NCBI GenBank assembly: GCA_947034885.2
Contig: OX344755.2
Location: forward strand, 26,977,052-27,041,051
From: Thuidium tamariscinum
Lineage: Eukaryota; Streptophyta; Bryopsida; Hypnales; Thuidiaceae
DNA length: 64,000 nucleotides
Direction: 5' to 3'
Shown here: piece after piece, positions 11,836 to 64,000 of the stretch
Layout of the letters: each line of letters opens with the position of its first letter
How positions within the stretch are numbered: position 1 is the first letter of the stretch
The notes under the pieces: generated by a model
What the model was told of the DNA's origin: nothing
The model's input: the letters and a program-made list of their open reading frames with translations, nothing else
The model's database searches: none
Program-made: the position numbers and the translations under genes

Positions 11836-11879
11836 TAGCAAGAAGGTCCAGTAATGTGCCACATTTGGTGTAACAGCGT

Positions 11880-12420: not shown

Positions 12421-12477
12421 TTTGGGGGGTTCAAGCTTTTTTGCAAAACGGGTTTTGGGGTGACCCGGAATTTCGGG

Positions 12478-12790: not shown

Positions 12791-12969
12791 GAAAACCATA
12801 CGAAGACACGATACAATATCCAACTTCTCCCTCTTCGGGTCTTGGGGAGATCTCTCCAACTGAATGTCTGAATCACAAGAACCCTAGGGATGGCACGATG
12901 AACATTGTTCCTACAACGCTTTGATTTTCAAAATCGCCCGATGGAATGGAGTCCTTCAAACTTTACACT

Positions 12970-13382: not shown

Positions 13383-15170
13383 GTTTAGCGCGTCCTGGAC
13401 TCACCTAAACACCTCGGAGATTTCCTCGGCCACGAGAATAACTCCGTAGGCTCTTGAATGGTGTGCATTTTTGAATTTTAATCGCATTCAATTTCAAATC
13501 ATATTTTTTGTAGTAATTCTATAAGACTGGATTGGATATTACAATGTGATCACGTTGAATTTCTCTTGCAACAAAGAAGTTTGCGCGTCTTGCTATCAAC
13601 TAAACACCTAGGAGATTTCCCCGGTCGAGAGAATAACCCCGTAGGCTCTTCAATGGTGTGCATTTTTTATTTTAATCGTATTGAATTTCATAGCATATTT
13701 TTTGTAGTATTTCTATAGAACTGGATTAGATATTACAATGTCATCACGTTGAATTTCTCTTGCAACTGAGAAGTTTGCGCGTCTTGATATCAACTAAAGA
13801 CCTCACAGATTTCCTAGGCCGAGAGAATAACCCCGTAGGCTCTTGTATGGTGTGCATTTTTGAATTTTAATCGCATTTAATTTCAGAGCATATTTATTGT
13901 AGTAATTCTATAGAACTGGATTAGATATTACAATGTGATCCGTTGAATTTGTCTTGCACCAAAGAAGTTTGCGCGTCTTGCTATCATCGAAACACTTAGA
14001 AGATTTCCGCGGCCAAGAGACTAACTCCGTAGGCTCTTGAATGGTGTGCATTTTTGAATTTTTATCGCATTGAATTTCAGAGGATATTTTTTGTAGTAAT
14101 TCTATAGAACTAGATTAGATATTACAATGTGATCACGTTGAATTTGTCTTGCAACTGAGAAGTTTGCGCGTCTTGGTATAATCTAAACACCGAGGAGATT
14201 TCCCCGGTCGAGAGAATAACCCCGTAGGCTCTTGAATGGTGTGCATTTTTGAATTTTAATCGCATTGAATTTTACAGCATATTTTTTGTAGTAATTCTAT
14301 AGAACAGGATTAGATATTACAATGTGATCACGTTGAATTTGTCTTGCAACTAAGAAGTTTGCGCGTCTTGATATCAACTAAACACCTAGGAGAGTTCCCC
14401 GGCTGAGAGACTAATTACGTAGGCTCTTGAATGGTGTGCTTTTTTGAATTTTAATCGCATTCAATTTCATAGCATATTTTTTGTAGTAATTCTATAGGAC
14501 TGGATTAGATATTACAATGTGATCGTTTTAAATTTGTCTTGGCACTGAGAAGTTTGCGCGTCTTGATATCAACTAAACACCTCGGAGATTTCCCTGGCCG
14601 AGAGACTAACTTCGTAGGCTCTTGAATGGTGTGCATTTTTGAATTTTAATCGCATCGAATTTTACTGCATATTTTTTGTAGTAATTCTATAGAACCGGAT
14701 TAGATATAACAATGTGATCACGTTGAATTTGTCTTGCAACTGAGAAGTTTGCGCGTCTTGATATCAACTAAACACCTAGGAAATTTCCTCGGCCAAGAGA
14801 ATAACCCCGTAGGCTCTTGAATGGTGTGCATTTTTGAATTTTAATCGCATTCAATGTTACAGCATATATTTTGTAGTAATTCTATAGAACCGGATTAGAT
14901 ATTACAATGTGATCACGTTGAATTTGTCTTGCAACTAAGAAGTTTGCGCGTCTTGATATCAACTTAACACCTAGGAGATTTCCCCGGCCGAGAGAATAAC
15001 TCCGTAGGCTCTTGAATGGTGTGCATATTTGAATTTTAATCGCATTCAATTTCATAGCATATTTATGGTAGTAATTCTATAGGACTGGATTAGATATTAC
15101 AATGTGATCACTTTGAATTTGTCTTGCAACAAAGAAGTTTGCGCGTCTTGGTATCAACTAAACACCTCGG
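13383..15170 (+). repeat. Diverged edge monomers of the satellite
   Basis: The first nine or so monomers carry many private substitutions and indels not seen again in the array. Examples are an altered palindrome (TTCTATAAGA) in the first unit, GTGATCCGTT near 13938, ACTAATTACG near 14413 and several 194-bp units. From about 15.2 kb onward, neighbours share the same small set of variants. This is the usual signature of an array edge escaping homogenisation. Confidence 0.8.
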
Positions 15171-15699
15171 AGATTTCCTCGGCCAGGAGAATAACTCCGT
15201 CGGTTCCTGAATGGTGTGCATTTTTGAATTTTAATCCCATTGAATTTCACAGCATATTTTTTGTAGTAATTCTATAGAACTGGATTAGATATTACAATGT
15301 TATCACGTTGAATTTGTCTTGCAACTGGGAAGTTTGCGCATCTTGATATCAACTAAACATCTCGGAGATTTCCTCGGCCAAGAGAATAACTCCGTAGGCT
15401 CTTGAATGGTGTGCATTTTTGAATTTTAATCGCATTCAATTTCACAGCATGCTTTTTGTAGTAATTCTATAGAACTGGATTAGATATTACAATGTGATCA
15501 CGTTGAATTTGTCTTGCAACTGAGAAGTTTGCGCGTCTTGATATCAACTAAACACCTCGGAGATTTCCTCGGCCAAGAGAATAACTCCGTAGGCTCTTGA
15601 ATGGTGTGCATTTTTGAATTTTAATCGCATTCAATTTCACAGCATGCTTTTTGTAGTAATTCTATAGAACTGGATTAGATATTACAATGTGATCACGTT

Positions 15700-16870
15700 G
15701 AATTTGTCTTGCAACTAAGAAGTTTGCGTGTCTTGATATCAACTAAACACCTCGGAGATTTCCTCGGCCAAGAGAATAACTCCGTAGGCTCTTGAATGGT
15801 GTGCATTTTTGAATTTTAATCGCATTGAATTTCACAGCATATTTTTTGTAGTAATTCTATAGAACTGGATTAGATATTACAATGTGATCGTTTTGAATTT
15901 GTCTTGCAACTAAGAAGTTTGCGCGTCTTGATATCAACTAAACACCTCGGAGATTTCCTCGGCCAGGAGACTAACTCCGTAGGCTCTTGAATGGTGTGCA
16001 TTTTTGAATTTTAATCGCATTCAATTTCACAGCATGCTTTTTTTAGTAATTCTATAGAACTGGATTAGATATTACAATGTGATCACGTTGAATTTGTCTT
16101 GCAACTGAGAAGTTTGCGCGTCTTGATATCAACTAAACACCTCGTAGATTTCCTCGGCCAAGAGAATAACCCCGTAGGCTCTTGAATGGTGTGCATTTTT
16201 GAATTTTAATCGCATTGAATTTCATAGCATATTTTTTGGAGTAATTCTATAGAACTGGATTAGATATTACAATGTGATCACGTTGAATTTGTCTTGCAAC
16301 TAAGAAGTTTGCGTGTCTTGATATCAACTAAACACCTCGGAGATTTCCTCGGCCAAGAGAATAACTCCGTAGGCTCTTGAATGGTGTGCATTTTTGAATT
16401 TTAATCGCATTGAATTTCACAGCATATTTTTTGTAGTAATTCTATAGAACTGGATTAGATATTACAATGTGATCGTTTTGAATTTGTCTTGCAACTAAGA
16501 AGTTTGCGCGTCTTGATATCAACTAAACACCTCGGAGATTTCCTCGGCCAGGAGACTAACTCCGTAGGCTCTTGAATGGTGTGCATTTTTGAATTTTAAT
16601 CGCATTCAATTTCACAGCATGCTTTTTTTAGTAATTCTATAGAACTGGATTAGATATTACAATGTGATCACGTTGAATTTGTCTTGCAACTGAGAAGTTT
16701 GCGCGTCTTGATATCAACTAAACACCTCGGAGATTTCCTCGGCCAAGAGAATAACCCCGTAGGCTCTTGAATGGTGTGCATTTTTGAATTTTAATCGCAT
16801 TGAATTTCACAGCATATTTTTTGGAGTAATTCTATAGAACTGGATTAGATATTACAATGTGATCACGTTG
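15700..16870 (+). repeat. 585-bp trimer duplicated in tandem
   Basis: The rare variant GCGTGTC occurs at 15726 and 16311, and GGCCAGGAGACTAAC at 15961 and 16546, both exactly 585 bp (three monomers) apart. The intervening variants agree closely. A related block recurs at 17714-18064 with the same 350-bp spacing between the two markers as at 15961-16311. Confidence 0.8.
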
Positions 16871-18239
16871 AATTTGTCTTGCAACTGAGAAGTTTGCGCG
16901 TCTTAATATCAACTAAACACCTCGGAGATTTCCTCGGCCAAGAGAATAACCCCGTAGGCTCTTGAATGGTGTGCATTTTGAATTTTAATCGCATTGAATT
17001 TCACAGCATATTTTTTGTAGTAATTCTATAGAACTGGATTAGATATTACAATGTGATCACGTTAAATTTGTCTTGCAACTAAGAAGTTTGCGCATCTTGA
17101 TATCAACTAAACATCTCGGAGATTTCCTCGGCCAAGAGAATAACCCCGTAGGCTCTTGAATGGTGTGCATTTTTGAATTTTAATCGCATTGAATTTCATA
17201 GCATATTTTTTGGAGTAATTCTATAGAACTGGATTAGATATTACAATGTGATCACGTTGAATTTGTCTTGCAACTGGGAAGTTTGCGCGTCTTGATGTCA
17301 ACTAAACACCTCGGAGATTTCCTCGGCCAAGAGAATAACCCCGTAGGCTCTTGAATGGTGTGCATTTTTGAATTTTAATCGCATTGAATTTCACAGCGTA
17401 TTTTTTGTAGTAATTCTATAGAACTGGATTAGATATTACAATGTGATCACGTTGAATTTGTCTTGCAACTAAGAAGTTTGCGCGTCTTGATATCAACTAA
17501 ACAACGAGGAGATTTCCCCGGCCAAGGGACCAACTCCGTAGGCTCTTGAATGGTGTGCATTTTTGAATTTAATCGCATTGAATTTCACAGCATATTTTTT
17601 GTAGTAATTCTATAGAACTGGATTAGATATTACAATGTGATCGTTTTGAATTTGTCTTGCAACTAAGAAGTTTGCGCGTCTTGATATCAACTAAACACCT
17701 CGGAGATTTCCTCGGCCAGGAGACTAACTCCGTAGGCTCTTGAATGGTGTGCATTTTTGAATTTTAATCGCATTGAATTTCACAGCATGCTTTTTTTAGT
17801 AATTCTATAGAACTGGATTAGATATTACAATGTGATCACGTTGAATTTGTCTTGCAACTGAGAAGTTTGCGCGTCTTGATATCAACTAAACACCTCGTAG
17901 ATTTCCTCGGCCAAGAGAATAACCCCGTAGGCTCTTGAATGGTGTGCATTTTTGAATTTTAATCGCATTGAATTTCATAGCATATTTTTTGTAGTAATTC
18001 TATAGAACTGGATTAGATATTACAATGTGATCACGTTGAATTTGTCTTGCAACTAAGAAGTTTGCGTGTCTTGATATCAACTAAACACCTCGGAGATTTC
18101 CTCGGCCAAGAGAATAACTCCGTAGGCTCTTGAATGGTGTGCATTTTTGAATTTTAATCGCATTGAATTTCACAGCATATTTTTTGTAGTAATTCTATAG
18201 AACTGGATTAGATATTACAATGTGATCACGTTGAATTTG

Positions 18240-21200
18240 TCTTGCAACTAAGAAGTTTGCGCGTCTTGATGTCAACTAAACACCTAGGAAATTTCCTCGG
18301 CCAAGAGAATAACCCCGTAGGCTCTTGAATGGTGTGCATTTTTGAATTTTAATCGCATTCAATGTTACAGCATATATTTTTTAGTAATTCTATAGAACTG
18401 GATCAGATATTACAATGTGATCACGTTGAATTTGTCTTGCAACTGAGAAGTTTGCGCGTCTTGATGTCAACTAAACACCTCGTAGATTTCCTCGGCCAAG
18501 AGAATAACCCCGTAGGCTCTTGAATGGTGTGCATTTTTGAATTTTAATCGCATTCAATTGCATAGCATATTTTTTGGAGTAATTCTATAGAACAGGATTA
18601 GATATTACAATGTGATCACGTTGAATTTGTCTTGCAACTGGGAAGTTTGCGCGTCTTGATGTCAACTAAACACCTAGGAAATTTCCTTGGCCAAGAGAAT
18701 AACCCCGTAGGCTCTTGAATGGTGTGCATTTTTGAATTTTAATCGCATTCAATGTTACAGCATATATTTTGTAGTAATTCTATAGAACTGGATCAGATAT
18801 TACAATGTGATCACGTTGAATTTGTCTTGCAACTGAGAAGTTTGCGCGTCTTGATGTCAACTAAACAACGAGGAGGTTTCCTCGGCCAAGAGAATAACCC
18901 CGTAGGCTCTTGAATGGTGTGCATTTTTGAATTTTAATCGCATTCAATGTTACAGCATATATTTTGTAGTAATTCTATAGAACTGGATCAGATATTACAA
19001 TGTGATCACGTTGAATTTGTCTTGCAACTGAGAAGTTTGCGCGTCTTGATGTCAACTAAACACCTCGGAGATTTCCTCGGCCAAGAGAATAACCCCGTAG
19101 GCTCTTGAATGGTGTGCATTTTTGAATTTTAATCGCATTCAATGTTACAGCATATATTTTGTAGTAATTCTATAGAACTGGATTAGATATTACAATGTGA
19201 TCACGTTGAATTTGTCTTGCAACTGAGAAGTTTGCGCGTCTTGATGTCAACTAAACACCTAGGAGATTTCCTCGGCCAAGAGAATAACCCCGTAGGCTCT
19301 TGAATGGTGTGCATTTTTGAATTTTAATCGCACTGAATTTTACAGCATATTTTTTGTAGTAATTCTATAGAACTGGATTAGATATTACAATGTGATCACG
19401 TTGAATTTGTCTTGCAACTGAGAAGTTTGCGCGTCTTGATGTCAACTAAACACCTAGGAGATTTCCTCGGCCAAGAGAATAACCCCGTAGGCTCTTGAAT
19501 GGTGTGCATTTTTGAATTTTGATCGCATTCAATGTTACAGCATATATTTTGTAGTAATTCTATAGAACTGGATTAGATATTACAATGTGATCACGTTAAA
19601 TTTGTCTGGCAACTGAGAAGTTTGCGCGTCTTGATGTCAACTAAACACCTCGTAGATTTCCTCGGCCAAGAGAATAACCCCGTAGGCTCTTGAATGGTGT
19701 GCATTTTTGAATTTTAATCGCATTGAATTTCATAGCATATTTTTTGGAGTAATTCTATAGAACTGGATTAGATATTACAATGTGATCACGTTGAATTTGT
19801 CTTGCAACTGAGAAGTTTGCGCGTCTTAATATCAACTAAACACCTCGGAGATTTCCTCGGCCAAGAGAATAACCCCGTAGGCTCTTGAATGGTGTGCATT
19901 TTGAATTTTAATCGCATTGAATTTCACAGCATATTTTTTGTAGTAATTCTATAGAACTGGATTAGATATTACAATGTGATCACGTTGAATTTGTCTTGCA
20001 ACTAAGAAGTTTGCGCGTCTTGATGTCAACTAAACACCTAGGAAATTTCCTCGGCCAAGAGAATAACCCCGTAGGCTCTTGAATGGTGTGCATTTTTGAA
20101 TTTTAATCGCATTCAATGTTACAGCATATATTTTGTAGTAATTCTATAGAACTGGATCAGATATTACAATGTGATCACGTTGAATTTGTCTTGCAACTAA
20201 GAAGTTTGCGCGTCTTGATGTCAACTAAACACCTAGGAAATTTCCTCGGCCAAGAGAATAACCCCGTAGGCTCTTGAATGGTGTGCATTTTTGAATTTTA
20301 ATCGCATTCAATGTTACAGCATATATTTTTTAGTAATTCTATAGAACTGGATCAGATATTACAATGTGATCACGTTGAATTTGTCTTGCAACTGAGAAGT
20401 TTGCGCGTCTTGATGTCAACTAAACACCTCGTAGATTTCCTCGGCCAAGAGAATAACCCCGTAGGCTCTTGAATGGTGTGCATTTTTGAATTTTAATCGC
20501 ATTCAATTGCATAGCATATTTTTTGGAGTAATTCTATAGAACAGGATTAGATATTACAATGTGATCACGTTGAATTTGTCTTGCAACTGGGAAGTTTGCG
20601 CGTCTTGATGTCAACTAAACACCTAGGAAATTTCCTTGGCCAAGAGAATAACCCCGTAGGCTCTTGAATGGTGTGCATTTTTGAATTTTAATCGCATTCA
20701 ATGTTACAGCATATATTTTGTAGTAATTCTATAGAACTGGATCAGATATTACAATGTGATCACGTTGAATTTGTCTTGCAACTGAGAAGTTTGCGCGTCT
20801 TGATGTCAACTAAACAACGAGGAGGTTTCCTCGGCCAAGAGAATAACCCCGTAGGCTCTTGAATGGTGTGCATTTTTGAATTTTAATCGCATTCAATGTT
20901 ACAGCATATATTTTGTAGTAATTCTATAGAACTGGATCAGATATTACAATGTGATCACGTTGAATTTGTCTTGCAACTGAGAAGTTTGCGCGTCTTGATG
21001 TCAACTAAACACCTCGGAGATTTCCTCGGCCAAGAGAATAACCCCGTAGGCTCTTGAATGGTGTGCATTTTTGAATTTTAATCGCATTCAATTGCATAGC
21101 ATATTTTTTGGAGTAATTCTATAGAACAGGATTAGATATTACAATGTGATCACGTTGAATTTGTCTTGCAACTGGGAAGTTTGCGCGTCTTGATGTCAAC

Positions 21201-22500
21201 TAAACACCTAGGAAATTTCCTTGGCCAAGAGAATAACCCCGTAGGCTCTTGAATGGTGTGCATTTTTGAATTTTAATCGCATTCAATGTTACAGCATATA
21301 TTTTGTAGTAATTCTATAGAACTGGATCAGATATTACAATGTGATCACGTTGAATTTGTCTTGCAACTGAGAAGTTTGCGCGTCTTGATGTCAACTAAAC
21401 AACGAGGAGGTTTCCTCGGCCAAGAGAATAACCCCGTAGGCTCTTGAATGGTGTGCATTTTTGAATTTTAATCGCATTCAATGTTACAGCATATATTTTG
21501 TAGTAATTCTATAGAACTGGATCAGATATTACAATGTGATCACGTTGAATTTGTCTTGCAACTGAGAAGTTTGCGCGTCTTGATGTCAACTAAACACCTC
21601 GGAGATTTCCTCGGCCAAGAGAATAACCCCGTAGGCTCTTGAATGGTGTGCATTTTTGAATTTTAATCGCATTCAATGTTACAGCATATATTTTGTAGTA
21701 ATTCTATAGAACTGGATTAGATATTACAATGTGATCACGTTGAATTTGTCTTGCAACTGAGAAGTTTGCGCGTCTTGATGTCAACTAAACACCTAGGAGA
21801 TTTCCTCGGCCAAGAGAATAACCCCGTAGGCTCTTGAATGGTGTGCATTTTTGAATTTTAATCGCACTGAATTTTACAGCATATTTTTTGTAGTAATTCT
21901 ATAGAACTGGATTAGATATTACAATGTGATCACGTTGAATTTGTCTTGCAACTGAGAAGTTTGCGCGTCTTGATGTCAACTAAACACCTAGGAGATTTCC
22001 TCGGCCAAGAGAATAACCCCGTAGGCTCTTGAATGGTGTGCATTTTTGAATTTTGATCGCATTCAATGTTACAGCATATATTTTGTAGTAATTCTATAGA
22101 ACTGGATTAGATATTACAATGTGATCACGTTAAATTTGTCTGGCAACTGAGAAGTTTGCGCGTCTTGATGTCAACTAAACACCTCGTAGATTTCCTCGGC
22201 GAAGAGAATAACCCCGTAGGCTCTTGAATGGTGTGCATTTTTGAATTTTAATCGCATTGAATTTCATAGCATATTTTTTGGAGTAATTCTATAGAACTGG
22301 ATTAGATATTACAATGTGATCACGTTGAATTTGTCTTGCAACTGAGAAGTTTGCGCGTCTTAATATCAACTAAACACCTCGGAGATTTCCTCGGCCAAGA
22401 GAATAACCCCGTAGGCTCTTGAATGGTGTGCATTTTGAATTTTAATCGCATTGAATTTCACAGCATATTTTTTGTAGTAATTCTATAGAACTGGATTAGA
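18240..22500 (+). repeat. 1949-bp 10-mer HOR with an internal 585-bp duplication
   Basis: Variant words match at an offset of 1949 bp: CATATATTTTTTAG at 18371 and 20320, and CAATTGCATAGC at 18555 and 20504. CAATTGCATAGC appears a third time at 21089, exactly 585 bp later, and downstream matches then continue at an offset of 2534 (1949+585). So a 10-mer was duplicated, and a trimer inside the second copy was duplicated again. Confidence 0.82.
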
Positions 22501-25500
22501 TATTACAATGTGATCACGTTGAATTTGTCTTGCAACTAAGAAGTTTGCGCGTCTTGATGTCAACTAAACACCTAGGAAATTTCCTCGGCCAAGAGAATAA
22601 CCCCGTAGGCTCTTGAATGGTGTGCATTTTTGAATTTTAATCGCATTCAATGTTACAGCATATATTTTGTAGTAATTCTATAGAACTGGATCAGATATTA
22701 CAATGTGATCACGTTGAATTTGTCTTGCAACTAAGAAGTTTGCGCGTCTTGATGTCAACTAAACACCTAGGAAATTTCCTCGGCCAAGAGAATAACCCCG
22801 TAGGCTCTTGAATGGTGTGCATTTTTGAATTTTAATCGCATTCAATGTTACAGCATATATTTTGTAGTAATTCTATAGAACGGGATCAGATATTACAATG
22901 TGATCACGTTGAATTTGTCTTGCAACTGAGAAGTTTGCGCGTCTTAATATCAACTAAACACCTCGGAGATTTCCTCGGCCAAGAGAATAACCCCGTAGGC
23001 TCTTGAATGGTGTGCATTTTGAATTTTAATCGCATTGAATTTCACAGCATATTTTTTGTAGTAATTCTATAGAACTGGATTAGATATTACAATGTGATCA
23101 CTTTGAATTTGTCTTGCAACTGGGAGGTTTGCGCGTCTTGATGTCAACTAAACACCTCGGAGATTTCCTCGGCCAAGAGAATAACCCCGTAGGCTCTTGA
23201 ATGGTGTGCATTTTTGAATTTTAATCGCATTGAATTTCATAGCATATTTTTTGGAGTAATTCTATAGAACTGGATTAGATATTACAATGTGATCACTTTG
23301 AATTTGTCTTGCAACTGAGAAGTTTGCGCGTCTTGATGTCAACTAAACACCTAGGAGATTTCCTCGGCCAAGAGAATAACCCCGTAGGCTCTTGAATGGT
23401 GTGCATTTTTGAATTTTAATCGCATTCAATGTTACAGCATATATTTTGTAGTAATTCTATAGAACTGGATCAGATATTACAATGTGATCACGTTGAATTT
23501 GTCTTGCAACTGAGAAGTTTGCGCGTCTTGATGTCAACTAAACACCTCGGAGATTTCCTCGGCCAAGAGAATAACCCCGTAGGCTCTTGAATGGTGTGCA
23601 TTTTTGAATTTTAATCGCATTGAATTTCACAGCATATATTTTGTAGTAATTCTATAGAACGGGATCAGATATTACAATGTGATCACGTTGAATTTGTCTT
23701 GCAACTGAGAAGTTTGCGCGTCTTGATATCAACTAAACACCTCGGAGATTTCCCCGGCCGAGAGACTAACTCCGTAGGCTCTTGAATGGTGTGCATTTTT
23801 GAATTTAATCGCATTGAATTTCACAGCATATTTTTTGTAGTAATTCTATAGAACTGGATTAGATATTACAATGTGATCACGTTGAATTTGTCTTGCAACT
23901 AAGAAGTTTGCGCGTCTTGATATCAACTAAACACCTCGGAGATTTCCTCGGCCAAGAGAATAACCCCGTAGGCTCTTGAATGGTGTGCATTTTTGAATTT
24001 TAATCGCATTGAATTTCATAGCATATTTTTTGTAGTAATTCTATAGAACTGGATTAGATATTACAATGTGATCACTTTGAATTTGTCTTGCAACTGAGAA
24101 GTTTGCGCGTCTTGATGTCAACTAAACACCTAGGAGATTTCCTCGGCCAAGAGAATAACCCCGTAGGCTCTTGAATGGTGTGCATTTTTGAATTTTGATC
24201 GCATTCAATGTTACAGCATATATTTTGTAGTAATTCTATAGAACTGGATTAGATATTACAATGTGATCACGTTAAATTTGTCTGGCAACTGAGAAGTTTG
24301 CGCGTCTTGATGTCAACTAAACACCTCGTAGATTTCCTCGGCCAAGAGAATAACCCCGTAGGCTCTTGAATGGTGTGCATTTTTGAATTTTAATCGCATT
24401 GAATTTCATAGCATATTTTTTGGAGTAATTCTATAGAACTGGATTAGATATTACAATGTGATCACGTTGAATTTGTCTTGCAACTGAGAAGTTTGCGCGT
24501 CTTAATATCAACTAAACACCTCGGAGATTTCCTCGGCCAAGAGAATAACCCCGTAGGCTCTTGAATGGTGTGCATTTTGAATTTTAATCGCATTGAATTT
24601 CACAGCATATTTTTTGTAGTAATTCTATAGAACTGGATTAGATATTACAATGTGATCACGTTGAATTTGTCTTGCAACTAAGAAGTTTGCGCGTCTTGAT
24701 GTCAACTAAACACCTAGGAAATTTCCTCGGCCAAGAGAATAACCCCGTAGGCTCTTGAATGGTGTGCATTTTTGAATTTTAATCGCATTGAATTTCATAG
24801 CATATTTTTTGGAGTAATTCTATAGAACTGGATTAGATATTACAATGTGATCACGTTGAATTTGTCTTGCAACTGAGAAGTTTGCGCGTCTTAATATCAA
24901 CTAAACACCTCGGAGATTTCCTCGGCCAAGAGAATAACCCCGTAGGCTCTTGAATGGTGTGCATTTTTAATTTTAATCGCATTGAATTTCACAGCATATT
25001 TTTTGTAGTAATTCTATAGAACTGGATTAGATATTACAATGTGATCACGTTGAATTTGTCTTGCAACTGAGAAGTTTGCGCGTCTTGATGTCAACTAAAC
25101 ACCTAGGAAATTTCCTCGGCCAAGAGAATAACCCCGTAGGCTCTTGAATGGTGTGCATTTTTGAATTTTAATCGCATTGAATTTCATAGCATATTTTTTG
25201 GAGTAATTCTATAGAACTGGATTAGATATTACAATGTGATCACGTTGAATTTGTCTTGCAACTGAGAAGTTTGCGCGTCTTAATATCAACTAAACACCTC
25301 GGAGATTTCCTCGGCCAAGAGAATAACCCCGTAGGCTCTTGAATGGTGTGCATTTTGAATTTTAATCGCATTGAATTTCACAGCATATTTTTTGTAGTAA
25401 TTCTATAGAACTGGATTAGATATTACAATGTGATCACGTTGAATTTGTCTTGCAACTAAGAAGTTTGCGCGTCTTGATGTCAACTAAACACCTAGGAAAT

Positions 25501-48950: not shown

Positions 48951-50130
48951 CTTATTTTTTGTAGTAATTCTATAGAACTGGATTAGATATTACAATGTGA
49001 TCACGTTGAATTTGTATTGCAACTGAGAAGTTTGCGCGTCTTGATATCAACTAAACACCTCGGAGATTTCCTCGGCCACGAGAATAACTCCGTAGGCTCT
49101 TGAATGGTGTGCATTTTTGAATTTTAATCGCACTGAATTTTACAGCATATTTTTTGTAGTAATTCTATAGAACTGGATTAGATATTACAATGTGATCACG
49201 TTGAATTTGTCTTGCAACTGAGAAGTTTGCGCGTCTTGATGTCAACTAAACACCTAGGAGATTTCCTCGGCCAAGAGAATAACCCCGTAGGCTCTTGAAT
49301 GGTGTGCATTTTTGAATTTTGATCGCATTCAATGTTACAGCATATATTTTGTAGTAATTCTATAGAACTGGATTAGATATTACAATGTGATCACGTTAAA
49401 TTTGTCTGGCAACTGAGAAGTTTGCGCGTCTTGATGTCAACTAAACACCTCGTAGATTTCCTCGGCCAAGAGAATAACCCCGTAGGCTCTTGAATGGTGT
49501 GCATTTTTGAATTTTAATCGCATTGAATTTCATAGCATATTGTTTGGAGTAATTCTATAGAACTGGATTAGATATTACAATGTGATCACGTTGAATTTGT
49601 CTTGCAACTGAGAAGTTTGCGCGTCTTGATGTCAACTAAACAACGAGGAGGTTTCCTCGGCCAAGAGAATAACCCCGTAGGCTCTTGAATGGTGTGCATT
49701 TTTGAATTTTAATCGCATTCAATGTTACAGCATATATTTTGTAGTAATTCTATAGAACTGGATCAGATATTACAATGTGATCACGTTGAATTTGTCTTGC
49801 AACTGAGAAGTTTGCGCGTCTTGATGTCAACTAAACACCTCGGAGATTTCCTCGGCCAAGAGAATAACCCCGTAGGCTCTTGAATGGTGTGCATTTTTGA
49901 ATTTTAATCGCATTGAATTTCACAGCATATATTTTGTAGTAATTCTATAGAACGGGATCAGATATTACAATGTGATCACGTTGAATTTGTCTTGCAACTG
50001 AGAAGTTTGCGCGTCTTGATATCAACTAAACACCTCGGAGATTTCCCCGGCCGAGAGACTAACTCCGTAGGCTCTTGAATGGTGTGCATTTTTGAATTTA
50101 ATCGCATTGAATTTCACAGCATGCTTTTTT
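48700..50130 (+). repeat. 1364-bp 7-mer HOR step
   Basis: Marker GAATTTAATCGC at 48730 and 50094 is spaced 1364 bp, seven monomers with one single-base loss. The same 1364-bp step occurs again at 61591 and 62955, so this short form arose or was copied at two places in the array. Confidence 0.75.
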
Positions 50131-53100: not shown

Positions 53101-56100
53101 GAATTTGTCTTGCAACTGAGAAGTTTGCGCGTCTTGATGTCAACTAAACACCTAGGAGATTTCCTCGGCCAAGAGAATAACCCCGTAGGCTCTTGAATGG
53201 TGTGCATTTTTGAATTTTGATCGCATTGAATTTCACAGCATATTTTTTGTAGTAGTTCTATAGAACTGGATTAGATATTACAATGTGATCACGTTGAATT
53301 TGTCTTGCAACTGAGAAGTTTGCGCGTCTTGATATCAACTAAACACCTCGGAGATTTCCTCGGCCAGGAGAATAACTCCGTAGGCTCTTGAATGGTGTGC
53401 ATTTTTGAATTTTAATCGCATTGAATTTCACAGCATATTTTTTGTAGTAATTCTATAGAACTGGATTAGATATTACAATGTGATCACTTTGAATTTGTCT
53501 TGCAACTGGGAGGTTTGCGCGTCTTGATGTCAACTAAACACCTCGGAGATTTCCTCGGCCAAGAGAATAACCCCGTAGGCTCTTGAATGGTGTGCATTTT
53601 TGAATTTTAATCGCATTGAATTTCATAGCATATTGTTTGGAGTAATTCTATAGAACTGGATTAGATATTACAATGTGATCACGTTGAATTTGTCTTGCAA
53701 CTGAGAAGTTTGCGCGTCTTGATGTCAACTAAACAACGAGGAGGTTTCCTCGGCCAAGAGAATAACCCCGTAGGCTCTTGAATGGTGTGCATTTTTGAAT
53801 TTTAATCGCATTCAATGTTACAGCATATATTTTGTAGTAATTCTATAGAACTGGATCAGATATTACAATGTGATCACGTTGAATTTGTCTTGCAACTGGG
53901 AGGTTTGCGCGTCTTGATATCAACTAAACACCTAGGAGATTTCCTCGGCCAAGAGAATAACCCCGTAGGCTCTTGAATGGTGTGCATTTTTGAATTTTGA
54001 TCGCATTGAATTTCACAGCATATTTTTTGTAGTAGTTCTATAGAACTGGATTAGATATTACAATGTGATCACGTTGAATTTGTCTTGCAACTGAGAAGTT
54101 TCCGCGTCTTGATATCAACTAAACACCTCGGAGATTTCCTCGGCCAGGAGAATAACTCCGTAGGCTCTTGAATGGTGTGCATTTTTGAATTTTAATCGCA
54201 TTGAATTTCACAGCATATTTTTTGTAGTAATTCTATAGAACTGGATTAGATATTACAATGTGATCACTTTGAATTTGTCTTGCAACTGGGAGGTTTGCGC
54301 GTCTTGATGTCAACTAAACACCTCGGAGATTTCCTCGGCCAAGAGAATAACCCCGTAGGCTCTTGAATGGTGTGCATTTTTGAATTTTAATCGCATTGAA
54401 TTTCATAGCATATTGTTTGGAGTAATTCTATAGAACTGGATTAGATATTACAATGTGATCACGTTGAATTTGTCTTGCAACTGAGAAGTTTGCGCGTCTT
54501 GATGTCAACTAAACAACGAGGAGGTTTCCTCGGCCAAGAGAATAACCCCGTAGGCTCTTGAATGGTGTGCATTTTTGAATTTTAATCGCATTCAATGTTA
54601 CAGCATATATTTTGTAGTAATTCTATAGAACTGGATCAGATATTACAATGTGATCACGTTGAATTTGTCTTGCAACTGAGAAGTTTGCGCGTCTTGATGT
54701 CAACTAAACACCTCGGAGATTTCCTCGGCCAAGAGAATAACCCCGTAGGCTCTTGAATGGTGTGCATTTTTGAATTTTAATCGCATTGAATTTCACAGCA
54801 TATATTTTGTAGTAATTCTATAGAACGGGATCAGATATTACAATGTGATCACGTTGAATTTGTCTTGCAACTGAGAAGTTTGCGCGTCTTGATATCAACT
54901 AAACACCTCGGAGATTTCCCCGGCCGAGAGACTAACTCCGTAGGCTCTTGAATGGTGTGCATTTTTGAATTTAATCGCATTGAATTTCACAGCATGCTTT
55001 TTTTAGTAATTCTATAGAACTGGATTAGATATTACAATGTGATCACGTTGAATTTGTCTTGCAACTGAGAAGTTTGCGCGTCTTAATATCAACTAAACAC
55101 CTCGGAGATTTCCTCGGCCAAGAGAATAACTCCGTAGGCTCTTGAATGGTGTGCATTTTTGAATTTTAATCGCATTGAATTTTACAGCTTATTTTTTGTA
55201 GTAATTCTATAGAACTGGATTAGATATTACAATGTGATCACGTTGAATTTGTATTGCAACTGAGAAGTTTGCGCGTCTTGATATCAACTAAACACCTCGG
55301 AGATTTCCTCGGCCACGAGAATAACTCCGTAGGCTCTTGAATGGTGTGCATTTTTGAATTTTAATCGCACTGAATTTTACAGCATATTTTTTGTAGTAAT
55401 TCTATAGAACTGGATTAGATATTACAATGTGATCACGTTGAATTTGTCTTGCAACTAAGAAGTTTGCGCGTCTTGATATCAACTAAACACCTCGGAGATT
55501 TCCTCGGCCAAGAGAATAACCCCGTAGGCTCTTGAATGGTGTGCATTTTTGAATTTTAATCGCATTGAATTTCATAGCATATTTTTTGTAGTAATTCTAT
55601 AGAACTGGATTAGATATTACAATGTGATCACTTTGAATTTGTCTTGCAACTGAGAAGTTTGCGCGTCTTGATGTCAACTAAACACCTAGGAAATTTCCTC
55701 GGCCAAGAGAATAACCCCGTAGGCTCTTGAATGGTGTGCATTTTTGAATTTTAATCGCATTGAATTTCACAGCATGCTTTTTTTAGTAATTCTATAGAAC
55801 TGGATTAGATATTACAATGTGATCACGTTGAATTTGTCTTGCAACTGAGAAGTTTGCGCGTCTTAATATCAACTAAACACCTCGGAGATTTCCTCGGCCA
55901 AGAGAATAACCCCGTAGGCTCTTGAATGGTGTGCATTTTTGAATTTTAATCGCATTGAATTTTACAGCTTATTTTTTGTAGTAATTCTATAGAACTGGAT
56001 TAGATATTACAATGTGATCACGTTGAATTTGTATTGCAACTGAGAAGTTTGCGCGTCTTGATATCAACTAAACACCTCGGAGATTTCCTCGGCCACGAGA

Positions 56101-59100
56101 ATAACTCCGTAGGCTCTTGAATGGTGTGCATTTTTGAATTTTAATCGCACTGAATTTTACAGCATATTTTTTGTAGTAATTCTATAGAACTGGATTAGAT
56201 ATTACAATGTGATCACTTTGAATTTGTCTTGCAACTGAGAAGTTTGCGCGTCTTAATATCAACTAAACACCTCGTAGATTTCCTCGGCCAAGAGAATAAC
56301 CCCGTAGGCTCTTGAATGGTGTGCATTTTTGAATTTTGATCGCATTCAATGTTACAGCATATATTTTGTAGTAATTCTATAGAACTGGATTAGATATTAC
56401 AATGTGATCACGTTAAATTTGTCTGGCAACTGAGAAGTTTGCGCGTCTTGATGTCAACTAAACACCTCGTAGATTTCTTCGGCCAAGAGAATAACCCCGT
56501 AGGCTCTTGAATGGTGTGCATTTTTGAATTTTAATCGCATTGAATTTCATAGCATATTTTTTGTAGTAATTCTATAGAACTGGATTAGATATTACAATGT
56601 GATCACTTTGAATTTGTCTTGCAACTGAGAAGTTTGCGCGTCTTAATATCAACTAAACACCTCGTAGATTTCCTCGGCCAAGAGAATAACCCCGTAGGCT
56701 CTTGAATGGTGTGCATTTTTGAATTTTGATCGCATTCAATGTGACAGCATATATTTTGTAGTAATTCTATAGAACTGGATTAGATATTACAATGTGATCA
56801 CGTTAAATTTGTCTGGCAACTGAGAAGTTTGCGCGTCTTGATGTCAACTAAACACCTCGTAGATTTCCTCGGCCAAGAGAATAACCCCGTAGGCTCTTGA
56901 ATGGTGTGCATTTTTGAATTTTAATCGCATTGAATTTCATAGCATATTTTTTGGAGTAATTCTATAGAACTGGATTAGATATTACAATGTGATCACGTTG
57001 AATTTGTCTTGCAACTGAGAAGTTTGCGCGTCTTGATATCAACTAAACACCTCGGAGATTTCCTCGGCCAAGAGAATAACCCCGTAGGCTCTTGAATGGT
57101 GTGCATTTTGAATTTTAATCGCATTGAATTTCACAGCATATTTTTTGTAGTAATTCTATAGAACTGGATTAGATATTACAATGTGATCACTTTGAATTTG
57201 TCTTGCAACTGGGAGGTTTGCGCGTCTTGATGTCAACTAAACACCTCGGAGATTTCCTCGGCCAAGAGAATAACCCCGTAGGCTCTTGAATGGTGTGCAT
57301 TTTTGAATTTTAATCGCATTCAATGTTACAGCATATATTTTGTAGTAATTCTATAGAACTGGATTAGATATTACAATGTGATCACGTTGAATTTGTCTTG
57401 CAACTGAGAAGTTTGCGCGTCTTGATGTCAACTAAACAACGAGGAGGTTTCCTCGGCCAAGAGAATAACCCCGTAGGCTCTTGAATGGTGTGCATTTTTG
57501 AATTTTAATCGCATTGAATTTCATAGCATATTTTTTGGAGTAATTCTATAGAACTGGATTAGATATTACAATGTGATCACGTTGAATTTGTCTTGCAACT
57601 GGGAAGTTTGCGCGTCTTGATGTCAACTAAACACCTAGGAAATTTCCTCGGCCAAGAGAATAACCCCGTAGGCTCTTGAATGGTGTGCATTTTTGAATTT
57701 TAATCGCATTCAATGTTACAGCATATATTTTGTAGTAATTCTATAGAACTGGATTAGATATTACAATGTGATCACGTTGAATTTGTCTTGCAACTGAGAA
57801 GTTTGCGCGTCTTGATGTCAACTAAACAACGAGGAGGTTTCCTCGGCCAAGAGAATAACCCCGTAGGCTCTTGAATGGTGTGCATTTTTGAATTTTAATC
57901 GCATTCAATGTTACAGCATATATTTTGTAGTAATTCTATAGAACTGGATTAGATATTACAATGTGATCACGTTGAATTTGTCTTGCAACTGAGAAGTTTG
58001 CGCGTCTTGATGTCAACTAAACACCTAGGAGATTTCCTCGGCCAAGAGAATAACCCCGTAGGCTCTTGAATGGTGTGCATTTTTGAATTTTGATCGCATT
58101 GAATTTCACAGCATATTTTTTGTAGTAGTTCTATAGAACTGGATTAGATATTACAATGTGATCACGTTGAATTTGTCTTGCAACTGAGAAGTTTCCGCGT
58201 CTTGATATCAACTAAACACCTCGGAGATTTCCTCGGCCAGGAGAATAACTCCGTAGGCTCTTGAATGGTGTGCATTTTTGAATTTTAATCGCATTGAATT
58301 TCACAGCATATTTTTTGTAGTAATTCTATAGAACTGGATTAGATATTACAATGTGATCACTTTGAATTTGTCTTGCAACTGGGAGGTTTGCGCGTCTTGA
58401 TGTCAACTAAACACCTCGGAGATTTCCTCGGCCAAGAGAATAACCCCGTAGGCTCTTGAATGGTGTGCATTTTTGAATTTTAATCGCATTGAATTTCATA
58501 GCATATTTTTTGTAGTAATTCTATAGAACTGGATTAGATATTACAATGTGATCACGTTGAATTTGTCTTGCAACTGAGAAGTTTGCGCGTCTTGATGTCA
58601 ACTAAACAACGAGGAGGTTTCCTCGGCCAAGAGAATAACCCCGTAGGCTCTTGAATGGTGTGCATTTTTGAATTTTAATCGCATTCAATGTTACAGCATA
58701 TATTTTGTAGTAATTCTATAGAACTGGATCAGATATTACAATGTGATCACGTTGAATTTGTCTTGCAACTGAGAAGTTTGCGCGTCTTGATGTCAACTAA
58801 ACACCTCGGAGATTTCCTCGGCCAAGAGAATAACACCGTAGGCTCTTGAATGGTGTGCATTTTTGAATTTTAATCGCATTGAATTTCACAGCATATATTT
58901 TGTAGTAATTCTATAGAACGGGATCAGATATTACAATGTGATCACGTTGAATTTGTCTTGCAACTGAGAAGTTTGCGCGTCTTGATATCAACTAAACACC
59001 TCGGAGATTTCCCCGGCCGAGAGACTAACTCCGTAGGCTCTTGAATGGTGTGCATTTTTGAATTTAATCGCATTGAATTTCACAGCATGCTTTTTTTAGT

Positions 59101-59780
59101 AATTCTATAGAACTGGATTAGATATTACAATGTGATCACGTTGAATTTGTCTTGCAACTGAGAAGTTTGCGCGTCTTAATATCAACTAAACACCTCGGAG
59201 ATTTCCTCGGCCAAGAGAATAACCCCGTAGGCTCTTGAATGGTGTGCATTTTTGAATTTTAATCGCATTGAATTTTACAGCTTATTTTTTGTAGTAATTC
59301 TATAGAACTGGATTAGATATTACAATGTGATCACGTTGAATTTGTATTGCAACTGAGAAGTTTGCGCGTCTTGATATCAACTAAACACCTCGGAGATTTC
59401 CTCGGCCACGAGAATAACTCCGTAGGCTCTTGAATGGTGTGCATTTTTGAATTTTAATCGCACTGAATTTTACAGCATATTTTTTGTAGTAATTCTATAG
59501 AACTGGATTAGATATTACAATGTGATCACGTTGAATTTGTCTTGCAACTAAGAAGTTTGCGCGTCTTGATATCAACTAAACACCTCGGAGATTTCCTCGG
59601 CCAAGAGAATAACCCCGTAGGCTCTTGAATGGTGTGCATTTTTGAATTTTAATCGCATTGAATTTCATAGCATATTTTTTGTAGTAATTCTATAGAACTG
59701 GATTAGATATTACAATGTGATCACTTTGAATTTGTCTTGCAACTGAGAAGTTTGCGCGTCTTGATGTCAACTAAACACCT
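49500..59780 (+). repeat. 4873/4093-bp HOR, two full copies plus the start of a third
   Basis: Variants at 49641, 50094, 51884 and 53251 reappear 4873 bp later (54514, 54967, 56757, 58124). After the point of a 780-bp difference the offset is 4093 (54031 with 58124; 54967 with 59060). The third copy diverges near 59780, where CCTAGGAGATTTCC replaces CCTAGGAAATTTCC. Periods correspond to 25 and 21 monomers. Confidence 0.85.
53220..54780 (+). repeat. 780-bp tetramer tandem duplication
   Basis: The sequence from about 53221 recurs from 54001 with an exact 780-bp shift, including the rare AGTAGTTCTATAG variant at 53251 and 54031 and the CATATTGTTTGGAG type that follows. Only one copy is present in the homologous place near 58.1 kb, so either this duplication is younger than the 4873-bp event or the second copy lost it. 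Confidence 0.85.
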
Positions 59781-61399
59781 AGGAGATTTCCTCGGCCAAG
59801 AGAATAACCCCGTAGGCTCTTGAATGGTGTGCATTTTTGAATTTTGATCGCATTCAATGTTACAGCATATATTTTGTAGTAATTCTATAGAACTGGATTA
59901 GATATTACAATGTGATCACGTTAAATTTGTCTGGCAACTGAGAAGTTTGCGCGTCTTGATGTCAACTAAACACCTCGTAGATTTCCTCGGCCAAGAGAAT
60001 AACCCCGTAGGCTCTTGAATGGTGTGCATTTTTGAATTTTAATCGCATTGAATTTCATAGCATATTTTTTGGAGTAATTCTATAGAACTGGATCAGATAT
60101 TACAATGTGATCACGTTGAATTTGTCTTGCAACTGAGAAGTTTGCGCGTCTTAATATCAACTAAACACCTCGGAGATTTCCTCGGCCAAGAGAATAACCC
60201 CGTAGGCTCTTGAATGGTGTGCATTTTGAATTTTAATCGCATTGAATTTCACAGCATATTTTTTGTAGTAATTCTATAGAACTGGATTAGATATTACAAT
60301 GTGATCACGTTGAATTTGTCTTGCAACTAAGAAGTTTGCGCGTCTTGATGTCAACTAAACACCTAGGAAATTTCCTCGGCCAAGAGAATAACCCCGTAGG
60401 CTCTTGAATGGTGTGCATTTTTGAATTTAATCGCATTCAATGTTACAGCATATATTTTGTAGTAATTCTATAGAACTGGATTAGATATTACAATGTGATC
60501 ACGTTGAATTTGTCTTGCAACTGAGAAGTTTGCGCGTCTTAATATCAACTAAACACCTCGGAGATTTCCTCGGCCAAGAGAATAACCCCGTAGGCTCTTG
60601 AATGGTGTGCATTTTTGAATTTTAATCGCATTGAATTTTACAGCTTATATTTTGTAGTAATTCTATAGAACGGGATCAGATATTACAATGTGATCACGTT
60701 GAATTTGTCTTGCAACTGAGAAGTTTGCGCGTCTTAATATCAACTAAACACCTCGGAGATTTCCTCGGCCAAGAGAATAACCCCGTAGGCTCTTGAATGG
60801 TGTGCATTTTGAATTCTAATCGCATTGAATTTCACAGCATATTTTTTGTAGTAATTCTATAGAACTGGATTAGATATTACAATGTGATCACTTTGAATTT
60901 GTCTTGCAACTGGGAGGTTTGCGCGTCTTGATGTCAACTAAACACCTCGGAGATTTCCTCGGCCAAGAGAATAACCCCGTAGGCTCTTGAATGGTGTGCA
61001 TTTTTGAATTTTAATCGCATTGAATTTCATAGCATATTTTTTGGAGTAATTCTATAGAACTGGATCAGATATTACAATGTGATCACGTTGAATTTGTCTT
61101 GCAACTGAGAAGTTTGCGCGTCTTGATGTCAACTAAACAACGAGGAGGTTTCCTCGGCCAAGAGAATAACCCCGTAGGCTCTTGAATGGTGTGCATTTTT
61201 GAATTTTAATCGCATTCAATGTTACAGCATATATTTTGTAGTAATTCTATAGAACTGGATCAGATATTACAATGTGATCACGTTGAATTTGTCTTGCAAC
61301 TGAGAAGTTTGCGCGTCTTGATGTCAACTAAACACCTCGGAGATTTCCTCGGCCAAGAGAATAACCCCGTAGGCTCTTGAATGGTGTGCATTTTTGAAT

Positions 61400-63100
61400 T
61401 TTAATCGCATTGAATTTCACAGCATATATTTTGTAGTAATTCTATAGAACGGGATCAGATATTACAATGTGATCACGTTGAATTTGTCTTGCAACTGAGA
61501 AGTTTGCGCGTCTTGATATCAACTAAACACCTCGGAGATTTCCCCGGCCGAGAGACTAACTCCGTAGGCTCTTGAATGGTGTGCATTTTTGAATTTAATC
61601 GCATTGAATTTCACAGCATGCTTTTTTTAGTAATTCTATAGAACTGGATTAGATATTACAATGTGATCACGTTGAATTTGTCTTGCAACTGAGAAGTTTG
61701 CGCGTCTTAATATCAACTAAACACCTCGGAGATTTCCTCGGCCAAGAGAATAACCCCGTAGGCTCTTGAATGGTGTGCATTTTTGAATTTTAATCGCATT
61801 GAATTTCATAGCATATTTTTTGGAGTAATTCTATAGAACTGGATCAGATATTACAATGTGATCACGTTGAATTTGTCTTGCAACTGAGAAGTTTGCGCGT
61901 CTTGATGTCAACTAAACAACGAGGAGGTTTCCTCGGCCAAGAGAATAACCCCGTAGGCTCTTGAATGGTGTGCATTTTTGAATTTTGATCGCATTGAATT
62001 TCACAGCATATTTTTTGTAGTAGTTCTATAGAACTGGATTAGATATTACAATGTGATCACGTTGAATTTGTCTTGCAACTGAGAAGTTTCCGCGTCTTGA
62101 TATCAACTAAACACCTCGGAGATTTCCTCGGCCAGGAGAATAACTCCGTAGGCTCTTGAATGGTGTGCATTTTTGAATTTTAATCGCATTGAATTTCACA
62201 GCATATTTTTTGTAGTAATTCTATAGAACTGGATTAGATATTACAATGTGATCACTTTGAATTTGTCTTGCAACTGGGAGGTTTGCGCGTCTTGATGTCA
62301 ACTAAACACCTCGGAGATTTCCTCGGCCAAGAGAATAACCCCGTAGGCTCTTGAATGGTGTGCATTTTTGAATTTTAATCGCATTGAATTTCATAGCATA
62401 TTGTTTGGAGTAATTCTATAGAACTGGATTAGATATTACAATGTGATCACGTTGAATTTGTCTTGCAACTGAGAAGTTTGCGCGTCTTGATGTCAACTAA
62501 ACAACGAGGAGGTTTCCTCGGCCAAGAGAATAACCCCGTAGGCTCTTGAATGGTGTGCATTTTTGAATTTTAATCGCATTCAATGTTACAGCATATATTT
62601 TGTAGTAATTCTATAGAACTGGATCAGATATTACAATGTGATCACGTTGAATTTGTCTTGCAACTGAGAAGTTTGCGCGTCTTGATGTCAACTAAACACC
62701 TCGGAGATTTCCTCGGCCAAGAGAATAACCCCGTAGGCTCTTGAATGGTGTGCATTTTTGAATTTTAATCGCATTGAATTTCACAGCATATATTTTGTAG
62801 TAATTCTATAGAACGGGATCAGATATTACAATGTGATCACGTTGAATTTGTCTTGCAACTGAGAAGTTTGCGCGTCTTGATATCAACTAAACACCTCGGA
62901 GATTTCCCCGGCCGAGAGACTAACTCCGTAGGCTCTTGAATGGTGTGCATTTTTGAATTTAATCGCATTGAATTTCACAGCATGCTTTTTTTAGTAATTC
63001 TATAGAACTGGATTAGATATTACAATGTGATCACGTTGAATTTGTCTTGCAACTGAGAAGTTTGCGCGTCTTAATATCAACTAAACACCTCGGAGATTTC
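61400..63100 (+). repeat. Second 1364-bp 7-mer duplication
   Basis: AACGGGATCAG and the following GAATTTAATCGC plus GCATGCTTTTTTTAG monomers recur at an offset of 1364 bp (61591 and 62955). After the first copy the expected TTTACAGCTTATT monomer is replaced by the TCATAGCATATTTTTTGGAG type, so the cassette is cut short there and whole in the second copy. Confidence 0.75.
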
Positions 63101-64000
63101 CTCGGCCAAGAGAATAACCCCGTAGGCTCTTGAATGGTGTGCATTTTTGAATTTTAATCGCATTGAATTTTACAGCTTATTTTTTGTAGTAATTCTATAG
63201 AACTGGATTAGATATTACAATGTGATCACGTTGAATTTGTATTGCAACTGAGAAGTTTGCGCGTCTTGATATCAACTAAACACCTCGGAGATTTCCTCGG
63301 CCACGAGAATAACTCCGTAGGCTCTTGAATGGTGTGCATTTTTGAATTTTAATCGCACTGAATTTTACAGCATATTTTTTGTAGTAATTCTATAGAACTG
63401 GATTAGATATTACAATGTGATCACGTTGAATTTGTCTTGCAACTGAGAAGTTTGCGCGTCTTGATATCAACTAAACACCTCGGAGATTTCCTCGGCCAAG
63501 AGAATAACCCCGTAGGCTCTTGAATGGTGTGCATTTTTGAATTTTAATCGCATTGAATTTCATAGCATATTTTTTGTAGTAATTCTATAGAACTGGATTA
63601 GATATTACAATGTGATCACTTTGAATTTGTCTTGCAACTGAGAAGTTTGCGCGTCTTGATGTCAACTAAACACCTAGGAGATTTCCTCGGCCAAGAGAAT
63701 AACCCCGTAGGCTCTTGAATGGTGTGCATTTTTGAATTTTGATCGCATTCAATGTTACAGCATATATTTTGTAGTAATTCTATAGAACTGGATTAGATAT
63801 TACAATGTGATCACGTTAAATTTGTCTGGCAACTGAGAAGTTTGCGCGTCTTGATGTCAACTAAACACCTCGTAGATTTCCTCGGCCAAGAGAATAACCC
63901 CGTAGGCTCTTGAATGGTGTGCATTTTTGAATTTTAATCGCATTGAATTTCATAGCATATTTTTTGGAGTAATTCTATAGAACTGGATTAGATATTACAA

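What the first reader, a model, noticed from the sequence alone, without database searches (positions are those of the whole stretch)
13383..64000. A very large 195-bp satellite with complex higher-order structure
At least 50.6 kb and about 260 head-to-tail monomers with no opposite-orientation copy and no transposon seen, in a genome whose flank is full of transposons. HOR organisation on this scale is well described for primate alpha satellite and less often for other lineages. I recognise neither the monomer nor its family.
Basis: partly seen in the sequence, partly recalled or inferred. Interest (0 to 1): 0.75.

Follow-up and report, generated by a model that had tools for sequence, protein, structure and literature searches.

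The report
Giant single-site moss satellite, probably not centromeric
A 195-letter DNA unit is repeated about 6,840 times in one 1.33-million-letter block near the end of a single chromosome of what is probably a moss; it is real and very large, but it lies about 1.2 million letters from the retrotransposon cluster that most likely forms that chromosome's centromere, so it is probably not the centromere.

Summary
The 195-bp array runs from C7:26,990,438 to about 28,321,790 (1.331 Mb, about 6,840 monomers). No opposite-strand copy was found within 2 mismatches of the anchor, and the anchor count fits the array alone: in effect a single-locus, chromosome-specific satellite. "Complex HOR" is only partly right. 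Blocks of monomers recur far more often than in shuffles, but no lag dominates. Sixteen sites carry 77% of the variation and recombine within monomers.

The implied centromere is not supported. An exact 60-mer from one Copia element sits in one cluster on each of the 11 chromosomes (73 of 80 copies), like the RLC5 clusters that papers take as putative moss centromeres. On C7 that cluster is at 25.68-25.79 Mb, 1.2 Mb from the array; none lies in the array. The array is then on the short arm. Its right edge meets an interstitial telomere tract whose near-copy on C3 lacks the satellite, 445 kb from the telomere.

Best reading: a non-centromeric short-arm satellite grown by local block duplication and short-tract exchange. 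Physcomitrium has single-locus arrays of this kind, reported with up to 700 copies.

The parts
13387..64000 (+). 195-bp satellite array, left 50.6 kb of a 1.331-Mb array (C7:26,990,438 to ~28,321,790); about 260 monomers here, all in one orientation
   Evidence: left edge; right edge L032 position ~739
13446..13466 (+). first copy of the near-invariant 21-base anchor GTAGGCTCTTGAATGGTGTGC, used to count monomers
   Evidence: 1252 of 1288 monomers read carry it exactly, 1286 of 1288 within 2 mismatches
13379..13386 (+). left junction: telomere-like CAGGGTTT at the point where flank homology stops and the array starts; such motifs are common in this flank, so the coincidence is weak
   Evidence: the related copy at C7:26,143,542 continues past this point with its own repeat instead of the satellite
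11841..13386 (+). left flank: dispersed repeat with ~120-bp sub-repeats, 85% to C7:26,142,011-26,143,542 and 84% to C3:43,368,851-43,370,331
11125..11845 (+). 291-bp tandem repeat; best copies elsewhere 96% at 20 kb from the left end of C3 and 95% at 235 kb from the left end of C11, others interior (C2 44.5 Mb, C5 6.2 Mb); a 66% relative lies just beyond the array's right edge

Best explanation
A chromosome-specific, non-centromeric satellite on the short arm of an acrocentric chromosome, most likely of a moss. The centromere of this chromosome is most likely the Copia cluster at C7:25.68-25.79 Mb; the satellite occupies 26.99-28.32 Mb between it and the telomere (28.77 Mb). Shown: size, in effect a single locus, one orientation, no insertion in the contiguous 250 kb, recurrence of multi-monomer blocks, decay of linkage within the monomer, and a right edge at an interstitial telomere tract whose near-copy on C3 has no satellite. 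Inferred: that a short repeat was placed in repeat-rich short-arm DNA, perhaps by repair at a telomere-like tract; that it grew by unequal exchange or replication-based duplication of blocks of a few to about 30 monomers; that short-tract gene conversion shuffled about 16 variant sites; and that it is carried as condensed short-arm DNA without a sequence-specific job.
For: An exact 60-mer shared by Copia copies of C7, C1 and C9 has 80 places: 73 of 80 in one cluster per chromosome on all 11 chromosomes; C7 has 8, all at 25.683-25.786 Mb. A Copia RT search shows one subfamily at the same places (on C2 a single hit, 57 kb from the 60-mer cluster, 150 of 556 candidates scored). Papers give such clusters as putative moss centromeres (PMC9946827, PMC7466625, PMC12885004, passages). 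The satellite is in effect on C7 only. Right edge: TTTAGGG-type tract (L032:741-802) followed by DNA 97% identical to C3:46,932,125-46,932,800, where the same tract is preceded by other repeats. Growth: at the 16-site haplotype level 515 of 1283 four-monomer runs are repeated against a shuffle mean of 23; with full monomers 285 against 10; longest block 19 monomers at lag 29. Shuffling: 87 of 120 site pairs show all four combinations; mean r2 falls from 0.45 (<=5 bp) to 0.11 (15-40 bp).
Against: No CENH3, Hi-C or FISH data. Size, period near nucleosome length, single orientation and lack of insertions are also what an active satellite centromere would show, and chromosome-specific centromere satellites are known in some species (recalled). 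The Copia element was not compared with RLC5 sequence. The flank repeats are not purely subtelomeric: several of their copies lie inside chromosomes. The host being a moss is inferred.
Confidence: 0.7

Rival explanations
1. The array is the active centromere of C7: a satellite centromere that has replaced, or moved 1.2 Mb from, the Copia-type centromere kept on the other ten chromosomes.
For: 1.33 Mb, one orientation, no insertion in the contiguous 250 kb, near-nucleosome-length unit; within-block identity 0.970-0.973 in the inner blocks of the contiguous stretch against 0.950 at the left and 0.930 at the right end.
Against: C7 keeps a Copia cluster with as many copies as other chromosomes (8; others 3-9 in their clusters), one of its copies 95.5% identical over 3.9 kb to one on C1. 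No copy of the 60-mer lies in or beside the array. No 10-bp WW periodicity in the monomer, which is weak evidence.
Confidence: 0.14
2. A sex-chromosome or accessory heterochromatin marker: C7 is the U or V chromosome, or carries a non-recombining segment, and the array expanded because crossing-over is low.
For: In effect on one chromosome only; many mosses have U/V chromosomes (recalled).
Against: No sex-linked gene was tested; C7 is of middling size (seventh of 11). Exchange between monomers is strong, though that does not need meiosis.
Confidence: 0.08
3. An assembly artefact: a collapsed or falsely extended repeat.
For: A run of 200 N lies inside the array, so at least one join may be uncertain; most of the array beyond 250 kb was not read.
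Against: 365 distinct monomers among 1286, in non-periodic order with sub-domains, and both edges joined to identifiable repeats. Exact length may still be wrong.
Confidence: 0.05

Closest known systems
Single-locus tandem repeats of Physcomitrium patens (Pp21_215, Pp602_86, Pp592_108, Pp19_95, Pp20_76; PMC6302065, abstract and sections 11-13 read)
   Same: Each has one high-copy locus on one chromosome, in a plant whose putative centromeres are RLC5 Copia clusters; co-localisation with RLC5 is reported for two loci of one repeat.
   Different: Those loci have up to 700 repeats, and the most abundant listed repeat (Pp17_50) totals 285,023 bp in an assembly that may collapse repeats; this one has about 6,840 monomers in 1.331 Mb. 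No sequence match to the 10 of 18 listed repeats compared.
Centromeric satellites of land plants, e.g. the 162-bp repeat of Marchantia polymorpha (PMC12885004, passage)
   Same: Unit of nucleosome-like length in tandem arrays.
   Different: Here in effect one chromosome only, and away from that chromosome's Copia cluster.
Primate alpha-satellite higher-order repeats (recalled)
   Same: Head-to-tail monomers with recurring multi-monomer blocks.
   Different: No dominant HOR period; blocks change along the array; no CENP-B box in the window (motif recalled).
RLC5 Copia clusters as putative moss centromeres (PMC9946827, PMC7466625, passages)
   Same: The Copia cluster of this genome: one main cluster per chromosome on 11 of 11.
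   Different: Concerns the neighbour at 25.7 Mb, not the array; sequence identity to RLC5 not tested.

Membership tests
Centromeric satellite | CENH3 nucleosomes on the repeat | not testable with these tools
   no ChIP data held
Centromeric satellite | Sits at the chromosome's primary centromere locus | tested here: not met
   By proxy only: the Copia cluster found once on all 11 chromosomes is at C7:25.683-25.786 Mb, 1.2 Mb from the array. This proxy is not CENH3.
Centromeric satellite | Present on most chromosomes of the species (common, not universal) | tested here: not met
   anchor count 6843 at up to 3 mismatches against 6828-6853 expected from the C7 array alone; more diverged relatives would be missed
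Higher-order-repeat satellite (alpha type) | A fixed multi-monomer unit repeated with higher identity than adjacent monomers | tested here: not met
   identity 0.961-0.966 at every lag 1-40 over 250 kb; local preferences exist, e.g. lag 29 (39% of pairs >=99%) and lag 16 (31%) each in one 100-monomer block
Higher-order-repeat satellite (alpha type) | Recurring ordered blocks of monomer variants | tested here: met
   four-monomer runs 515 of 1283 repeated against a shuffle mean of 23; 21 matching runs of 8 or more monomers, 16-site haplotypes
Single-locus moss satellite (Physcomitrium kind) | One major locus on one chromosome | tested here: met
Single-locus moss satellite (Physcomitrium kind) | Locus separate from the RLC5-like Copia cluster | tested here: met
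Single-locus moss satellite (Physcomitrium kind) | Host is a moss | tested here: inconclusive
   11 large contigs, 103-kb organelle-size contig opening with a tRNA, ITS1 of 1,137 bp, TTTAGGG telomeres, one Copia cluster per chromosome; no name available
Subtelomeric satellite | Lies within subtelomere-type repeats near a chromosome end | tested here: inconclusive
   445 kb from the C7 telomere; right edge joins tract-plus-unit DNA 73% identical over about 205 bp to the unit at the C7 end. But copies of the flank repeats lie both near ends (C3 20 kb, C11 235 kb, C9, C2) and inside chromosomes (C2 44.5, C5 6.2, C8 12.6, C10 14.9 Mb).
Subtelomeric satellite | Shared among several chromosome ends | tested here: not met
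   in effect C7 only

The most novel reading that the evidence does not exclude
C7 is caught in a centromere change: ten chromosomes keep Copia-type centromeres, while on C7 a chromosome-specific 1.33-Mb satellite 1.2 Mb away has taken over, or shares, kinetochore function beside the old Copia cluster. That would be a direct view of a retrotransposon centromere turning into a satellite centromere.
Probability: 0.12. Interest if true: 0.8.

Novelty: new member of a known kind. Interest (0 to 1): 0.42.

Why it matters
The Sphagnum genome paper describes bryophytes as lacking typical centromeric structures and proposes Copia clusters as the centromere (PMC9946827, passage). A 1.33-Mb array on one chromosome, beside but apart from the Copia cluster, suggests that a megabase satellite can arise and homogenise without being the centromere. 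It offers a natural test of whether satellite size alone attracts kinetochores. The 16 shuffled variant sites make it a good place to measure exchange within an array.

Tried and rejected
Centromere reading: weakened after the Copia clusters were mapped. CENP-B box: 0 in the window. Nucleosome-type 10-bp periodicity: observed power is below the shuffle mean, 60% of 1000 shuffles equal or exceed it. Methylation from sequence: CpG observed/expected is 1.14 in the array against 0.44-0.75 in flanks and chromosome end and 0.17-0.21 in Copia, which tempted me to call it unmethylated; but rare CpG transitions are 2 times those at other C/G sites (2.69 against 1.34 per site among 365 distinct monomers), and in Copia 10 of 104 CpGs are TG/CA in the other copy against 65 transitions at 3723 other C/G positions, so nothing is concluded. 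Origin of the monomer: no convincing match in 17 fetched loci (some partly or wholly N) plus both flanks (best E 0.26). Sixteen reverse matches at 3 mismatches hint at a dispersed relative; none is in a fetched locus and they were not located. A purely subtelomeric setting: not upheld, since copies of the flank repeats also lie inside chromosomes. Species: size search in papers found nothing; three moss genome notes with 11 chromosomes, seen in a search listing, have other sizes. Bet v 1 search to place the plant was uninformative. Rfam on the window: nothing. Paper searches for a described satellite: and for moss centromeres 39, 41, 71; judged from listings except the papers named as read, and none listed there was recognised as this satellite.

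Full report
WHAT IS THERE. The window is C7:26,977,052-27,041,051 of a 363.2-Mb genome. Eleven contigs are 17.5-54.2 Mb long and eight are 12-115 kb. C7 is 28,767,333 bp and ends in TTTAGGG repeats. It runs on to C7:~28,321,790, 1.331 Mb in all. I read 250.6 kb of it contiguously (with 200 N inside), the right-end 10.7 kb and five 3.4-kb samples; the rest is known only through pattern counts.

IN EFFECT ONE LOCUS, ONE DIRECTION. A 21-base anchor is present within 2 mismatches in 1286 of 1288 monomers read. Genome-wide it has 6831 forward and 0 reverse matches at up to 2 mismatches, and 6843 and 16 at up to 3 (reversed-pattern control 1 and 1). Mean periods measured are 194.3-195.0, leaving out the block that holds the 200 N, which predicts 6828-6853 monomers for the array span. 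The array can thus account for essentially all forward matches, with room for at most some tens of copies elsewhere or a few kilobases of inserted DNA. Only the first 100 places are listed, all on C7; the statement about other chromosomes rests on this count and on the lack of reverse matches. More diverged relatives would be missed, and the 16 reverse matches at 3 mismatches are unexplained.

INTERNAL STRUCTURE. In 1286 aligned monomers only 16 of 195 columns have a commonest letter below 90%, and these carry 77% of all departures from consensus. There are 365 distinct monomers, and mean pairwise identity is 95.4%. Mean identity hardly depends on lag between 1 and 40 (0.961-0.966) and falls to 0.943 at lag 800, so there is no array-wide higher-order repeat; some 100-monomer blocks prefer a lag (29 or 16). 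Ordered blocks do recur: with 16-site haplotypes 515 of 1283 four-monomer runs are repeated against a mean of 23 in 100 local shuffles, with full monomers 285 against 10, and the longest matching block is 19 monomers at lag 29. Between variant sites, 87 of 120 pairs show all four combinations (each at least 3 times), and mean r2 drops from 0.45 within 5 bp to 0.11 at 15-40 bp. Block duplication plus short-tract exchange is the simplest account; recurrent mutation at the same sites is possible but less simple. The left 60-80 kb forms its own sub-domain, and the first nine monomers and the right end are the most diverged of what I read; the consensus is weighted to the left part.

WHERE THE CENTROMERE PROBABLY IS. 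A search for Copia reverse transcriptase (150 of 556 candidates scored) showed one subfamily clustering at one place per chromosome, among many dispersed Copia copies. An exact 60-mer shared by copies from C7, C1 and C9 was then counted over the whole genome. All 80 places are listed, and 73 of 80 fall in one cluster per chromosome: C1 51.68-51.78 Mb (6), C2 1.40-1.42 (4), C3 46.00-46.09 (8), C4 4.98-5.13 (9), C5 29.44-29.56 (6), C6 13.46-13.57 (3), C7 25.68-25.79 (8), C8 25.00-25.09 (8), C9 0.74-0.82 (7), C10 23.60-23.65 (6), C11 7.55-7.68 (8). The seven outliers are on C1, C2 (two), C4, C5 and C11 (two). None is in the satellite. Papers describe this pattern for the Copia family RLC5 in Physcomitrium and Sphagnum and take it as the putative centromere; [quoted passage not shown] PMC7466625 passages; PMC12885004 passages). 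I did not have RLC5 sequence to compare. On this reading C7 is acrocentric and the satellite lies on its short arm, 1.20 Mb beyond the cluster and 0.45 Mb from the telomere.

THE EDGES. At the left, homology of the flank to C7:26,142,011-26,143,542 (85%) stops at window 13386 at CAGGGTTT; the related copy continues with its own ~120-bp repeat. Such motifs occur about every 100 bp in the last few hundred bases of this flank, so this coincidence is weak. At the right, the last monomer runs into a 62-bp degenerate TTTAGGG tract (L032:741-802). The DNA beyond is 97% identical to C3:46,932,125-46,932,800, and relatives of two flank repeats keep the same spacing over about 4.3 kb on C3. On C3 the same tract is preceded by a 291-bp repeat and other sequence, with no satellite. 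The C7 and C3 sites lie 445 and 430 kb from their chromosome ends; whether the whole distal segments are homologous was not tested. At the C7 end itself I read tract-plus-unit DNA of the same form, 73% identical over about 205 bp; that unit also occurs near ends of C4, C5 and C6 (40 of 141 candidates scored), where the tract was not read next to it. Against a purely subtelomeric setting, copies of the flank repeats also lie inside chromosomes, such as C2 44.5, C5 6.2, C8 12.6 and C10 14.9 Mb.

WHAT KIND OF PLANT. Not named. Eleven chromosomes, TTTAGGG telomeres, a 103-kb contig opening with a tRNA, an ITS1 of 1,137 bp between 18S and 5.8S and one Copia cluster per chromosome all suit a moss. 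This is inference. Three moss genome notes seen in a search listing have 11 chromosomes but other genome sizes.

COMPARISON WITH WHAT IS KNOWN. In Physcomitrium patens, five tandem repeats each have one high-copy locus (up to 700 copies) on one chromosome, though some also have minor loci; co-localisation with RLC5 regions is reported for two loci of one of them; the most abundant listed repeat totals 285,023 bp (PMC6302065, abstract and sections 11-13 read). Those figures come from an assembly in which up to 45% of hits lay on unplaced scaffolds, so true sizes may be larger. The present array is the same kind of thing, here at about ten times the reported copy number. Its monomer had no match in ten of the 18 listed repeats. 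Searches for a described 195-bp satellite gave no paper recognised as fitting (listings only), and the library is open-access only.

VERDICT. The satellite is real and impressive in size. The implied centromere role is not supported by the best available proxy, and HOR organisation is irregular. It is best filed as a new, very large member of a known kind, with a modest chance that C7 is a centromere in transition.

Noticed in passing
G000 C1-C11 (e.g. C7:25,683,266-25,785,598; L056, L057, L058): One Copia subfamily forms one main tight cluster on each of 11 chromosomes (73 of 80 exact 60-mer copies), a likely centromere map of this genome; most clusters lie near one chromosome end, so most chromosomes look acrocentric.
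   Followed up: partly
G000:C3:46,932,125-46,936,528 and C7:28,321,854-28,326,259 (L032, L059): Short arms of C3 and C7 share sequence (97% over 677 bp, conserved spacing of flank repeats over 4.3 kb) at 430 and 445 kb from their telomeres, suggesting exchange or duplication between short arms.
   Followed up: partly
G000:C6:1,514-37,465; C7:3,315-9,575; C1:2,541-18,834: Runs of end-located repeat units spaced about 1.1-1.7 kb; telomere tracts recur in the C1 run and in the C7 right-end units, and copies of the C7 unit on C4-C7 are nearly identical.
   Followed up: no
genome-wide, not located: Sixteen reverse-strand matches to the monomer anchor at 3 mismatches (control 1), possibly a dispersed relative or source of the satellite.
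   Followed up: partly
L031 (G000:C14:4216-7366): rDNA unit with a long ITS1 of 1,137 bp; the 5.8S search reported it only on an 11.8-kb unplaced contig (39 of 9314 candidates scored).
   Followed up: no
L032:2349-3633: A 174-bp tandem repeat (7.4 copies, 82% matches) 1.6 kb beyond the right edge of the satellite; a similar stretch precedes the telomere tract on C3 (by eye).
   Followed up: no
L056:295-855 and 5412-6034: A 60-bp tandem repeat on either side of the Copia reading frame in the C7 cluster, in opposite orientations.
   Followed up: no
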